NCBI GenBank assembly: GCA_003994795.1
Contig: AP018269.1
Location: forward strand, 3,897,677 to 3,961,676
DNA length: 64,000 nucleotides
Reading direction: 5' to 3'
DNA from: Cylindrospermum sp. NIES-4074
GTDB taxonomy: Bacteria > Cyanobacteriota > Cyanobacteriia > Cyanobacteriales > Nostocaceae
The notes under the pieces are model-generated. The model saw nothing but the letters and a program-made list of their open reading frames with translations. It was not told the origin of the DNA and ran no database searches. The position numbers were made by a program, and so were the translations under genes. Below, in pieces: positions 13,090-30,319 of the stretch (its first letter is position 1; each line of letters begins with the position of its first letter).

Positions 13090-13218
13090 TACAGCAAAGT
13101 GCTGAGTGCTGAGTGCTGTTAGCGGTAGCGGGGCGTTTAGCCCGTGCTGAGTATAAACCTAGTTGCTTCAAGGCTTTGAGGAATCAACACCGTCCTAACC
13201 ACTGAGAAGGTTGCTATA
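13090..13218. mobile_element. TA-flanked MITE-like element, copy A
   Basis: Copy A has ends CAGCAA (13092) and TTGCTA (ending 13216), each flanked by TA. It shares its 3' two-thirds (GTATAAACCTAGTTGCTTCA... CCTAACC...GAGAAGGTTGCTATA) with copy B (18169-18277) and copy C (26488-26592). The first part is variable and here holds GTGCTGA heptamers and a GGGGCGTTTAGCCC hairpin. There is no ORF. It lies four bases beyond the pstB stop. Confidence 0.75.
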
Positions 13219-14992: not shown

Positions 14993-15153
14993 ACTCAAAA
15001 CTCAAACCTCAAACCTCAAAACTCAAAACTCAAAACTCAAAACTCAAAACTCAAAACTCAGCACTCAGCACTCAGCACTCAGCACTCAAAACTCAGCACT
15101 CAAAACTCAGCACTCAGCACTCAGCACTCAGCACTCAAAACTCAGCACTCAGA
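14993..15153. repeat. Long STRR array: 23 uninterrupted heptamers (ACTCAAA / ACTCAGC)
   Basis: Twenty-three consecutive 7-base units run without phase change: mostly ACTCAAA in the first half, then mixed with ACTCAGC, plus two CCTCAAA units and a final ACTCAGA. The last unit contains the stop codon (TGA on the minus strand, 15149-15151) of the convergent sugar-phosphate transferase gene. Long ORFs across it on the plus strand are artefacts of a period that is not a multiple of three and lacks stops. Confidence 0.95.
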
Positions 15154-16243
15154 ACTGTTGGCGTATTCTTTGCCAGACAGTAAAACTTAAAAAGATGATG
15201 ATACTCATGGCTGTGGTGAGGATCACCACTACGGTCATCCCTTGTATTCGCATTGCCAACAAGTTGAAAACCAAGGTAATTGACCAAAGGGTGAAGGCAG
15301 CATGGCGCTGGGAAAATCCCCAAGCAAGCAAGCGGTGATGTAGGTGGTCTTTGCCAGGGGTACTGAGGGGGTTTTTCCCAGCCATCAGTCGTCGCACAAA
15401 AACTTGAGTAGTGTCCAGCACAGGCAATAACAGAAATAATACTGTAGGTATCAGGGCGTAGACCGTATTTTGTTGGAGTTTGCCTAAAATACTAGTTGCT
15501 GCTAGCACATAGCCAAAAAAGTAGGCTCCGGCATCACCCATGATGATGCGTGAGGGATGGAAGTTGTGGCGCAAAAAGCCCAAAGCTGCACCTCCCAAAG
15601 CAGCTAGAACTAAGGTCGCCGCTGCCCGATTATCAAACTGGCAGGAAACCCCTAACAAACTCATAGCAGTAATAAAGCTGATCCCTCCTGCTAAACCATC
15701 CATTCCATCCATCAAGTTAATGGCATTGGTAATTCCTACTACCCACAACACTGTCAACGCCATTGATAGTAGTGAGTCAATGGGAGTGCCAAAAGTTACT
15801 TTAATGCTGATGCCATTAGCAACCAGCAACAGTGCCGTGATGATCTGCGTCCACAAGCGGACAGAGGGAGGTAAGCCGAATTGATCATCGATAAAGCCCA
15901 CCAGGACTAATATTGAACCCCCCAACAAAATCGTCAACACCTGAGCCAATACACCTTGAAGTTCAATCGGTCGTAAGAGGCTAGCTAATACCAAGGCGGC
16001 AATCACTCCGGCGTAGATAGCTAAACCCCCTGCATTTGGTAAAGGTTCTCGATTAAGTCGTCTAGCGTTAGGTTGGTCAGCCCAACCCACCCGTAAAGCG
16101 AATTTGCGTACTGTGGGCATCAAACGCCACGTTACAAGCCAAGCTAAGAGAAATGTAAATACTACCGCTAACCAGCCGGTGCCGCTAGGGTTAGCAATGC
16201 CGAGGGACTTAAGGGAGTTGTATAGATTCATCTCCCAATTCAA
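15149..16243 (-). CDS. WecA/MraY-family undecaprenyl-phosphate sugar-1-phosphate transferase
   Basis: This polytopic membrane enzyme would transfer a sugar-1-phosphate (GlcNAc-1-P in WecA) from a UDP-sugar to undecaprenyl phosphate, starting a lipid-linked glycan. The product has 364 residues and about ten hydrophobic segments. Family motifs are NAGGLAIY at 70-77, catalytic DD119-120 (GFIDDQFG), NAINLMDGMDGLAGG at 173-187, MGDAGA at 235-240 and the HLHHR motif at 300-304. The His motif and absence of MraY-specific stretches favour the WecA/TagO branch over MraY. Its stop codon lies inside the STRR array. Start ATG at 16243; ATG at 16231 is an alternative. It could feed cell-wall or surface polysaccharide synthesis, but is far from the cluster at 35-49 kb. 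Confidence 0.9.
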   Translation of the reverse strand: MNWEMNLYNSLKSLGIANPSGTGWLAVVFTFLLAWLVTWRLMPTVRKFALRVGWADQPNARRLNREPLPNAGGLAIYAGVIAALVLASLLRPIELQGVLAQVLTILLGGSILVLVGFIDDQFGLPPSVRLWTQIITALLLVANGISIKVTFGTPIDSLLSMALTVLWVVGITNAINLMDGMDGLAGGISFITAMSLLGVSCQFDNRAAATLVLAALGGAALGFLRHNFHPSRIIMGDAGAYFFGYVLAATSILGKLQQNTVYALIPTVLFLLLPVLDTTQVFVRRLMAGKNPLSTPGKDHLHHRLLAWGFSQRHAAFTLWSITLVFNLLAMRIQGMTVVVILTTAMSIIIFLSFTVWQRIRQQF

Positions 16244-16385: not shown

Positions 16386-18065
<1,680 letters not shown>

Positions 18066-18168: not shown

Positions 18169-18277
18169 TATAGCAAAGTGCTGTTAGCTTTCTTCGGGGC
18201 GTTTAGCCCGTATAAACCCAGTTGCTTCAGTGCTTTGAGCGTTCAACATAGTCCTAACCGCCGAGAAGGTTGCTATA
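18169..18277. mobile_element. TA-flanked MITE-like element, copy B
   Basis: TA then TAGCAA (18171) at the left, TTGCTA (ending 18275) then TA at the right; 105 bp between the TA pairs. The 3' part matches copies A and C at most positions. The variable part has a short TTCTTCGGGGCGTTTAGCCCG segment instead of heptamers. It lies between the groEL terminator and the large hybrid kinase gene. Confidence 0.75.
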
Positions 18278-26007: not shown

Positions 26008-26379
26008 GGGAGAGAGTAGGCGTAGGCGGTTGCAGATCAGTTTTTAGACTGGTTTGAGGAAAGTCCGGGCTCCCGAAAGACCAGACTTGCTGGATAACGT
26101 CCAGTGCGTGCGAGCGTGAGGATAGTGCCACAGAAAGATACCGCCAAATTGAATGAATTCAATTTGGTAAGGGTGCAAAGGTGCGGTAAGAGCGCACCAG
26201 CAGCGTCGAGAGGCGTTGGCTCGGTAAACCCCGGTTGGGAGCAAGGCCAGAGGAACTACGGTTGGTCTTTTACCAGTTCCGTGAAAGGAGAGCCGCTAGA
26301 GGCGTTTGGTAACAAGCGTCCCAGATAGATAACTGCCCTCGCAAGAGAACAGAACCCGGCTTACTACCGACTCTTTCCT
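26008..26379 (+). ncRNA. rnpB: RNase P RNA (M1 RNA)
   Basis: This is the catalytic RNA of RNase P, which matures tRNA 5' ends. Recognised from conserved blocks: GAGGAAAGTCCGGGCTCCC near the start, the GAGGATAGTGCCACAGAAA block, GGTAAGGGTGCAAAGGTG and GGTAAGAGCGCACCAGC, GGTAAACCCC, and the 3' block GAACCCGGCTTACTACCGACTC that pairs with GAGAGAGTAGGCG at the 5' end. Ends are approximate to a few bases. The arm between the ATACCGCC and GGTAAGGGTG blocks (the P12 position) is a short A/T palindrome (AAATTGAATGAATTCAATTT). As I recall, heterocystous cyanobacteria usually carry STRR heptamers there. Confidence 0.96.
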
Positions 26380-26380
26380 T

Positions 26381-26421
26381 AAACGAACTGTGGAGGTTTT
26401 ATTTTCCATAGTTCGTTTTTT
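26381..26421 (+). terminator. Intrinsic terminator of rnpB
   Basis: AAACGAACTGTGGA pairs, with one mismatch, with TCCATAGTTCGTTT around a T-rich loop, followed by TTTT. It begins one or two bases after the mature RNA end. Confidence 0.9.
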
Positions 26422-26477
26422 CAGTTAGCACATAAGTACTAAATCTCATACAGCAATTTACAGATGAATAGACCACT

Positions 26478-26608
26478 GTAGAGATGTTATAGCAAAGTGC
26501 TTGATGCTTCGGCTGAAGTGCTGAGTATAAACCTAGTTGCTTCAAGGCTTTAAGGAATCAACACCGTCCTAACCACCGAGAAGGTTGCTATACATACAAC
26601 ATCTCTAC
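26478..26608. repeat. 28-bp palindromic repeat interrupted by the TA-flanked element
   Basis: Left part GTAGAGATGT (26478-26487) and right part ending AACATCTCTAC (26598-26608) are the two halves of one palindrome with copy C between them. Removing the insert and one TA gives 11-bp arms around a 6-base centre, exactly the size and form of the uninterrupted palindrome at 30292-30319. The 30 or so bases to the left of both palindromes are also alike (...CAGAYGAATAGAC...). Confidence 0.85.
26488..26592. mobile_element. TA-flanked MITE-like element, copy C (nested)
   Basis: TA at 26488-26489, TAGCAA from 26490, TTGCTA ending 26590, TA at 26591-26592; 101 bp between the TA pairs. The 3' part is nearly identical to copy A. 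The variable part holds CTTCGGCTGAAGTGCTGAG, also seen twice at 62.6 kb. Insertion inside another repeat makes this the clearest evidence that the family has moved. Confidence 0.85.
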
Positions 26609-26798
26609 ATGGGTTTGAATGAAGAGTATGTAGTTCGTTTAACTGAAAACTGCTGTAAGATGAAAGCTATTTTTTTCTTCAAGTAGCGATCGCCATTCCC
26701 TTTCTCACAAATCATTGCTACACTATCAAGTTCCTTCATGCAAACGTGATCAGCTGTCGCTCTTTTAAGAAAGCACATTAATGGCGGGCAAGATGCCC

Positions 26799-29149: not shown

Positions 29150-29184
29150 ACTAATGACTAATGACCAATGACTAATGACTAATG
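29150..29184. repeat. Heptamer array ACTAATG x5 that contains the next gene's start codon
   Basis: The units are four ACTAATG and one ACCAATG, ending in the ATG at 29182-29184, which is the initiator of the Gfo/Idh-type gene. Every unit carries an ATG; because the period is seven, successive ATGs are in different frames. Confidence 0.9.
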
Positions 29185-30240
29185 ACTAAAATCAAAATTG
29201 CCGTTATCGGAGTTGGACGTTGGGGAGTGCATTTACTGCGGAATTTTTTAGCACATCCCCAAGTTAGTGTTGTGGCGATCGTAGATCCCAATCCAGAACG
29301 ATTGGTAGCGATAAAACAGCAGTTTAACTTAGATGAAAATATATTATTAATAACTGAGTGGCAAGCTCTGAAACAATTACCAGAACTGACAGGGGTAGTA
29401 ATTGCCACTCCTGCCACTACTCATTATCCTTTAATTAAAGATGCCCTCCAGCAGGGATACCATGTTTTAGCAGAAAAACCCTTAACTCTTGACCCAGCAG
29501 AATGTCGGGAGCTTTGTCAACTGGCAGAGCGTCAGCAGTTAATTCTCATGGTTGACCACACCTATTTATTTCACCCAGCAGTTGAGCGAGGGCAAGCTGT
29601 ATTAAATGAGGGGAAGTTAGGCGATTTACGCTATGGTTACTCTACCCGCAGCCATTTAGGGCCTGTCCGGCAAGATGTAGATGCGCTGTGGGACTTAGCT
29701 GTTCATGATATTGCCATTTTTAATACCTGGCTAGGTCAGTTACCTGTGAAAGTGCAAGCAACGGGTACAGTATGGCTACAGAGAGCAAAGGAAGCGGGGA
29801 AAACGATCACCCTATCAGGTTTAGCTGATTTAGTCTGGGTTACACTGACATACCCAGATGATTTTCAAGCATATATTCACTTGTGCTGGCTCAACCCTGA
29901 TAAGCAGCGACGATTGGGGATTGTCGGCAGTCGGGGCACTTTGATTTTTGATGAAATGTCTCTCGCTTCACCCTTAACCTTGCTACACGGTGAGTTTGCT
30001 AAACAGGGAAATCAATTTATGCCAGTGAATCAACAGCAAGAGGTGCTAGAGATTGAAACAGGTGAACCGTTGCAACGAGTTTGCGATCGCTTTATTGTCT
30101 CTATCCTTGAGAACACTCCTCCACTGGTTTCCTCTGGTTGGGTAGGTACAGAATTGGTGGAAATTCTCGCCGCTTTGACAGTATCTTTAAACCAAGACGG
30201 CAAGCCTGTTTTTCTGGACGTAACCCATAAAAAAGGATAA
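29182..30240 (+). CDS. Gfo/Idh/MocA-family oxidoreductase
   Basis: The product is a 352-residue NAD(P)-dependent sugar or sugar-nucleotide oxidoreductase. The N-terminal Rossmann motif is VIGVGRWGVHLLRNF at 8-22, then VVIATPATTHYPL and the family EKP (AEKPLTLD near 97). The C-terminal half is the mixed alpha/beta substrate domain, with HDIAIFNTWLG supplying the usual catalytic His region. The substrate is not determined; members act on inositol, glucose-fructose or UDP-sugars. The initiator ATG is the last unit of a heptamer array and there is no normal Shine-Dalgarno. Convergent with the sensor kinase gene downstream. Confidence 0.93.
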   Translation: MTKIKIAVIGVGRWGVHLLRNFLAHPQVSVVAIVDPNPERLVAIKQQFNLDENILLITEWQALKQLPELTGVVIATPATTHYPLIKDALQQGYHVLAEKPLTLDPAECRELCQLAERQQLILMVDHTYLFHPAVERGQAVLNEGKLGDLRYGYSTRSHLGPVRQDVDALWDLAVHDIAIFNTWLGQLPVKVQATGTVWLQRAKEAGKTITLSGLADLVWVTLTYPDDFQAYIHLCWLNPDKQRRLGIVGSRGTLIFDEMSLASPLTLLHGEFAKQGNQFMPVNQQQEVLEIETGEPLQRVCDRFIVSILENTPPLVSSGWVGTELVEILAALTVSLNQDGKPVFLDVTHKKG

Positions 30241-30291
30241 TGAGTTTTCCACAGCGGTTCTTTACAGCGATTTGCAGACGAATAGACTACA

Positions 30292-30319
30292 GTAGAGACG
30301 TTTCATGAAACGTCTTTAC
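30292..30319. repeat. Uninterrupted 28-bp palindrome between convergent genes
   Basis: GTAGAGACGTT, six bases, then AACGTCTTTAC. It is the intact form of the repeat split by copy C at 26.5 kb, with homologous left flank from about 30263. It lies between two gene ends and could act as a two-way terminator, though T-runs are short. Confidence 0.75.

What the first reader, a model, noticed from the sequence alone, without database searches (positions are those of the whole stretch)
26478..26608. A small TA-flanked element caught nested inside another palindromic repeat, with a reconstructable empty site
Deleting the 101-bp element plus one TA restores a 28-bp palindrome (11-bp arms, 6-base centre) of the same size as the uninterrupted copy at 30292-30319; both also share about 30 bases of left flank. 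This is direct evidence that the element inserted at a TA and duplicated it, which is the behaviour of IS630/Tc1-mariner-type transposition. The parent transposase is not in this window.
Basis: partly seen in the sequence, partly recalled or inferred. Interest (0 to 1): 0.7.

Follow-up and report, generated by a model that had tools for sequence, protein, structure and literature searches.

The report
Jumping DNA nested in jumping DNA
A 101-base stretch of bacterial DNA without genes has hopped into another short repeat, which is itself part of a second small jumping element; the kind of enzyme that probably moves it is encoded elsewhere in the same genome, so this is a clear but ordinary case of nested mobile DNA.

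Summary
Observation confirmed. Window 26490-26590 is a 101-bp element, TAGCAA...TTGCTA, between two TAs. Removing it plus one TA restores a 28-bp palindrome, the family norm (49 of 50 listed of 99). At least 42 copies or fragments exist in this genome; TA stands at both ends in 32 of 37 copies whose ends could be placed. Two kinds of empty site support TA duplication: paralogues of the interrupted repeats, and syntenic places lacking the element in two congeners. A 966-bp IS630 element in nine places of the genome has ends TATAGC-N14-TTAGGAC. The element's right end has the same boxes and spacing; a right end from other genomes matches the closest of 40 printed IS ends at 26 of 28 bases. The left end matches poorly. 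Two additions: the palindrome sits inside a second MITE (26449-26657) whose ends resemble another IS630 group, and the element's left part is a 7-bp repeat array that holds further small repeats. New member of a known kind.

The parts
26488..26592 (+). MITE1 with both TA copies (TATAGCAA...TTGCTATA, 105 bp); 26490-26590 is the 101-bp element without them
26488..26489 (.). TA, left copy of the target duplication (its T is also the last base of the left palindrome arm)
26591..26592 (.). TA, right copy of the target duplication
26498..26525 (+). left part of MITE1: a degenerate form of the TGCTGAG heptamer array seen in other copies
   Evidence: the heptamer reading of this copy is by eye
26564..26592 (-). 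right terminal motif of MITE1: TATAGC-N14-TTAGGACGG, in register with the IS630 element's ends
26478..26487 (.). left part of the interrupted 28-bp GTAGAG palindrome (the left arm runs on to 26488)
26593..26608 (.). rest of the interrupted palindrome; right arm 26598-26608
26449..26657 (.). outer MITE2 (TACAGCAATTT...AAAACTGCTGTA), 209 bp with MITE1 inside, 106 bp without MITE1 and one TA
30263..30319 (+). second, partial MITE2 in the window: left end plus uninterrupted palindrome 30292-30319; no right half seen

Best explanation
The feature is a non-autonomous IS630/Tc1-mariner-type element (MITE1) that inserted by cut and paste at the TA at bases 11-12 of a 28-bp palindrome and duplicated that TA. 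The palindrome is the core of an older insertion, MITE2, another TA-type MITE lying just after a terminator-like hairpin that follows rnpB. An IS630-type transposase made by full-length relatives (a 966-bp element found in nine places of this genome) most likely recognises the TATAGC...TTAGGAC end, excises the element and joins it at TA. Shown: anatomy, copy number, TA at both ends, empty sites, shared terminal motif at the right end. Inferred: that this particular IS supplied the transposase, how the divergent left end is recognised, and the time order of the layers.
For: Copies: 40 loci fetched, plus two more at window 18169-18277 and contig 1 6047631. TA: 32 of 37 TA/TA, the other five one base off on one side; if the TAs are counted as part of the element, flanking duplications outside it are no commoner than by re-pairing flanks (2 bp: 5 of 37 against 3.3 expected; 3 bp: 2 against 1.0; 5 bp: 1 against 0.12; 4 and 6-9 bp: 0). 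Palindrome length 28 bp in 49 of 50 listed. Paralogous empty sites: the window copy against L207 and L210, and with gaps L196 and L215; the L011 copy against L192 (GTTCATT-TA-CCTGAAAATAGCTGTA), L199 (TA) and L203 (TG). Element absent at syntenic places in G001 and/or G002 for L013, L017, L037, L039, L042, L045. IS630 type: TATAGC-N14-TTAGGAC at both ends in eight of nine own-genome copies, each 966 bp and TA-bounded; the ninth lacks the right end; HTH_Tnp_IS630 and DDE_3 domains. Target preference: A at -3 in 23 of 37 and T at +3 in 21 of 37, against 0.32 and 0.35 at 1396 flanking TAs (binomial p 0.0002 and 0.005; positions picked after seeing twelve).
Against: The left end does not match the IS beyond TATAGC: heptamer-type left end against own IS ends 9 and 8 of 28, the window's left end 8 and 11 of 28; shuffles do as well in 13,234, 18,215, 21,024 and 2,814 of 50,000. 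In the own genome the right end matches the own IS ends at only 16-17 of 28, and another IS630 group (L093, L094) also starts TATAGC, so the TATAGC box alone is not specific. Ends were located with a template that contains TA, which favours finding TA. The window site has no orthologous form for comparison. In other genomes TA/TA holds in 15 of 19 copies with both ends placed. Several syntenic sites are rearranged at the junction. The IS transposase is in two frames. No movement was observed.
Confidence: 0.9

Rival explanations
1. The element joins next to TA without duplication because it carries a TA of its own (IS200/IS605-like single-strand insertion); the DNA result would look the same as a 2-bp duplication.
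For: With TA on both sides, sequence alone cannot tell a duplicated TA from a carried one.
Against: The right terminal motif is shared with an element coding for HTH_Tnp_IS630 and DDE_3 domains. The target preference looks symmetric, A-N-N-TA-N-N-T, which suits a two-ended integration. No search for HUH transposases was run.
Confidence: 0.05
2. The composite (palindrome plus element) is one old unit that spreads together, so no insertion into this palindrome occurred.
For: A second MITE1 copy (L011) also lies inside a MITE2 with a GTAGAG palindrome.
Against: In L011 the insertion point is a different TA, outside the palindrome. Of 37 own copies with both ends placed, the window copy alone has GTAGAG or CTCTAC within 25-30 bases of the junctions. 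Uninterrupted palindromes and MITE2-type ends are common. The two congeners gave no match to the element among the candidates scored.
Confidence: 0.03
3. The element spreads through an RNA intermediate, as was proposed for very small dispersed repeats in Nostoc (Elhai et al. 2008; content recalled, paper not held).
For: The element is short and can be folded with its ends closed (-24.7 and -28.0 kcal/mol on the two strands; no shuffles run). Its heptamer array holds small inserts of a kind I recall from that paper.
Against: Single TA in empty sites, the target preference and the IS630 terminal motif point to DNA transposition.
Confidence: 0.03

Closest known systems
IS630/Tc1-mariner insertion sequences, with ISY100 of Synechocystis as the studied cyanobacterial case (PMC2170065, abstract and passages seen)
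   Same: TA target duplicated; transposase with HTH and DDE domains; mini-elements with 30 bp from each end move
   Different: MITE1 codes for nothing, and its left end lacks a good match to the inner half of the IS630 end
Nezha MITE of cyanobacteria (Zhou et al. 2008; seen only as a name and reference in PMC3733652 and PMC10969869, content recalled)
   Same: Short, non-coding, TA-flanked by recollection
   Different: Terminal sequence could not be compared, as the paper is not held; it may or may not be the same family
BrickBuilt of Porphyromonas gingivalis (PMC4596501, abstract start and passages seen)
   Same: A MITE that carries a tandem repeat array inside
   Different: 23-bp units and variable target duplications there; 7-bp units and TA here
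GTAG-tagged palindromic repeats / REPs (PMC3733652, passages seen)
   Same: The 28-bp palindrome starts with GTAG; that paper reports GTAG-15 dimers inside longer palindromes with ends TATAGGA...TCCTATA in Anabaena variabilis
   Different: Here the palindrome is itself the target of a TA element; link to a RAYT gene not tested

Membership tests
Non-autonomous IS630/Tc1-mariner element (MITE) | Duplicated TA at the insertion site | tested here: met
   32 of 37 own copies TA/TA; paralogous empty sites with a single TA or one-base variant; a carried TA cannot be excluded from sequence alone
Non-autonomous IS630/Tc1-mariner element (MITE) | Right end shares the terminal repeat of an IS630 element | tested here: met
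   TATAGC-N14-TTAGGAC in register; a right end of other genomes 26 of 28 with the closest IS end (L245) and 20-22 of 28 with the own IS; own-genome right end 16-17 of 28 with the own IS
Non-autonomous IS630/Tc1-mariner element (MITE) | Left end shares the terminal repeat of the same IS630 element | tested here: inconclusive
   TATAGC only; beyond it 8-11 of 28 against own-genome IS ends, not clearly above shuffles
Non-autonomous IS630/Tc1-mariner element (MITE) | No transposase gene; repeated in the genome | tested here: met
   105 bp; 40 loci and two more
Non-autonomous IS630/Tc1-mariner element (MITE) | IS630 element with matching ends in the same genome | tested here: met
   L082-L090, nine hits, eight full-length; coding region in two frames, so joined by frameshift or inactive
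Non-autonomous IS630/Tc1-mariner element (MITE) | Movement by that transposase | not testable with these tools
   needs an assay
Nezha MITE | Nezha terminal repeat sequence | not tested
   paper not held; sequence not recalled
GTAG-tagged palindromic repeat (REP) | Palindrome with terminal GTAG, in many copies | tested here: met
   107 copies
GTAG-tagged palindromic repeat (REP) | Associated RAYT transposase | not tested
   no search was run

The most novel reading that the evidence does not exclude
MITE1 has drifted away from its parent at one end: the inner half of the left terminal repeat is gone and a heptamer array stands in its place. In this genome the right end has changed to resemble that array (TATAGCAA at both ends; 15 of 28 inner positions alike, 152 of 50,000 shuffles as good, against 10 of 28 for a right end of other genomes, 10,143 of 50,000), and this version then multiplied. 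If so, the transposase reads a tandem repeat as its binding site. The comparison was made after seeing the sequences.
Probability: 0.15. Interest if true: 0.55.

Novelty: new member of a known kind. Interest (0 to 1): 0.32.

Why it matters
It shows layers of mobile DNA in about 200 bp next to the RNase P RNA gene, with empty forms for the inner layer, and it ties two small repeats of this genome to two IS630 groups present in the same genome. That gives a cheap way to order insertions and a testable substrate for an IS630 transposase. The broader principle is already known.

Tried and rejected
Orthologous empty site at the window locus: the region gave a match in 216 of 217 family genomes, own genome included. 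In the 29 loci compared (L129-L157, congeners L129 and L130 included) similarity ends by window base 26427, that is at the rnpB terminator, so there is none. L104 (another genome) first looked like a second insertion into a GTAGAG palindrome; comparison with L164 and L167 showed that it sits at another TA beside such a palindrome, with the far flank diverged, so it is not counted. Plasmid collection: no match. Genome contigs pattern, one exact 20-mer: no match. Insertion inside genes: 11 of 56 copies with both ends placed (37 own, 19 other) gave a stop-free frame of 70 aa or more over the joined site, longest 146 aa; none was identified, so no gene interruption is claimed. Rows dropped before counts: L025 and L044 (no left end), L047 (no right end) among own loci. 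L209 lacks the left half of MITE2, and for L194 the script picked another match (one search shows TTCATTTATCTGAAAATAGCTGTA there); neither is used. The test for duplications longer than TA was empty by construction and was replaced. One search aligned wrong strands and one search had one end off by one base; both were redone. Of 15 flank segments searched in two congeners, five (L014, L016, L023, L027, L036) gave no hit; L011, L018 and L029 gave one flank only; L040 gave a second flank only as a short repeat-like piece; all four are left out. Nezha and small-dispersed-repeat papers are not held. A print search for the heptamer with Nostoc listed 10 of 20 papers, none on such repeats by title; none was opened.

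Full report
What is there. Window 26488-26592 is a 105-bp stretch, TATAGCAA...TTGCTATA (101 bp without the outer TAs), which splits a palindrome whose arms are 26478-26488 and 26598-26608. Joining the flanks with one TA gives 28 bp with 11-bp arms. In the whole genome the palindrome GTAGAGAYGTT-N6-AACRTCTCTAC occurs 107 times, the reversed control never. With the gap free to vary, 49 of the 50 sites listed (of 99) are exactly 28 bp and one is 27. Fourteen of those 50 have the centre ACATGT, which puts a TA exactly where this element went in (counted by eye).

The element family. The own genome gave 43 matching pieces, which are 40 loci; two more copies were found later. The window holds three copies: 26488-26592, 13090-13218 and 18169-18277. 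The shared plan is TATAGCAAAG, a 7-bp array (TGCTGAG)n, a conserved core, and an end ...TTGCTATA. Ends could be placed in 37 of 40 loci. Of these, 17 measure 84, 91, 98, 105 or 112 bp, that is, steps of seven; the other 20 are 129-244 bp, with other small repeats in the array or longer arrays. TA/TA stands in 32 of 37; the other five differ by one base on one side. The search template contained TA, which is a bias. If the TAs are taken as part of the element, duplications outside it are about as rare as by re-pairing flanks. TA sites used are richer in A at -3 (23 of 37) and T at +3 (21 of 37) than TAs in the flanks; the two positions were picked from twelve after seeing them. In 217 family genomes, own included, 39 have a match to the core, with at most four candidates scored per genome; one search shows two further ones (G003, G020), so this is a lower bound. 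There the right end commonly reads CTATGTGACTACGGCTATA. The congeners G001 and G002 gave none.

Empty sites. The flanks of the palindrome belong to a larger repeat, TACAGC...GCTGTA, window 26449-26657, here called MITE2. A pattern for its end occurs 71 times with up to three mismatches, the control 0 times; some elements show both ends, so these are ends, not elements. Uninterrupted copies L207 and L210 align with the window copy on both sides of the insertion, L196 and L215 with gaps; L209 has only the right half. A second MITE1 copy, L011, lies at another TA in another MITE2. Its paralogues L192 (GTTCATT-TA-CCTGAAAATAGCTGTA), L199 (TA) and L203 (TG) are empty there. Fifteen flank segments of own loci were searched in the two congeners and ten gave a hit in at least one. 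With both flanks recovered the element is absent at L013, L017, L037, L039, L042 and L045. L042 is clean on its left side in both congeners (TA in one, TG in the other) and has an extra own-genome insert on its right. L039 and L045 align across the site with one dinucleotide but with divergent flanks. L013, L017 and L037 are rearranged at the junction, so they show absence only. The window locus itself has no orthologous form, because similarity ends at the rnpB terminator in the 29 loci compared.

Parent. The own genome has 41 DDE_3 matches. Among the 30 loci returned, one group of nine (L082-L090) has TATAGC-N14-TTAGGAC ends; eight are 966 bp, have it at both ends and are TA-bounded, and one lacks the right end. 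With one mismatch allowed the motif also hit L069 and L094 once each, and the group L093/L094 has other ends that start TATAGC. The coding region is in two frames, with HTH_Tnp_IS630 and DDE_3; the NCBIfam IS630 model is just under its cut-off for the second frame (99.8 against 100 bits). Matches to this IS, some of them short, occur in 112 of 217 family genomes, own included, and in neither congener. The MITE1 right end has the same boxes at the same spacing in the own genome: 25 exact hits, each of the form TATAGCAACYTT.... A right end of other genomes matches the own IS ends at 22 and 20 of 28 and L245, the closest of 40 ends printed, at 26 of 28; L245 is a fragment of the IS (494 bp aligned). 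The left end matches beyond TATAGC no better than shuffles for heptamer copies; this is the weak point. MITE2 ends likewise resemble a second IS630 group (L071-L081, TACAGCAGTTTGC...): 17 of 24 inner positions on one side, 0 of 20,000 shuffles as good; 12-13 of 24 on the other.

Reading. MITE2 came to lie after rnpB, carrying or acquiring the palindrome; MITE1 then entered at a TA in the palindrome. Each layer fits TA-directed IS630-type transposition. ISY100 work shows that mini-elements with 30 bp of each end move with transposase as the only protein needed, and that in one set 34 of 39 products had a normal TA duplication (PMC2170065, abstract and passages). That the 966-bp IS moves MITE1 is inferred.

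Place among known things. MITEs in cyanobacteria, IS630 elements, tandem arrays inside MITEs (PMC4596501, passages) and palindromic repeats inside longer inverted repeats (PMC3733652, passages) are described. I saw no record of this exact family in the listings, which are keyword searches; the two papers most likely to hold it are not in the library. The host is taken to be a cyanobacterium of the Nostocaceae from its repeats, by recollection; no call names it or the family of genomes searched.

Noticed in passing
window 26449-26657: An outer TA-type MITE (TACAGC...GCTGTA) holds the palindrome; 71 ends of this kind in the genome; ends resemble the IS630 group L071-L081.
   Followed up: partly
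window 13090-13218 and 18169-18277: Two further copies of the element; both carry an extra small repeat (TTAGC...GGGGCGTTTAGCCCG) in the heptamer array.
   Followed up: partly
L020, L022, L023, L026, L030, L035, L039, L040, L048: The heptamer array is joined or replaced by another G+C-rich repeat (GGAGCCAGCCGCGTGGGCGGGTTTCCCGACTTGAGG...); element length 188-195 bp in these, apart from L040, whose left end is doubtful.
   Followed up: no
window 14993-15156; 17994-18056; 29150-29189: Other short tandem arrays: ACTCAAA x23.4, GGCATGGGT x7.0, ACTAATG x5.7.
   Followed up: no
L175 (about 1328 onward): In genome G175 a different element with TATAGC...TTAGGAC at both ends lies where G145 (L167) has a short stretch without it; probably a symmetric MITE of the same IS630 type.
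   Followed up: partly
L042 right flank: About 100 bp absent from both congeners follows the element directly, between two ACTAGT repeats; perhaps another small insertion.
   Followed up: no
L082, L083, L085: Copies of the 966-bp IS630 element share a flank (GTGACAGAAGAGGG), so some lie in another repeated sequence.
   Followed up: no
window 26013-26378: RNase P RNA gene (Rfam RF00010) with a terminator-like hairpin at 26381-26418 just before the nested elements.
   Followed up: yes
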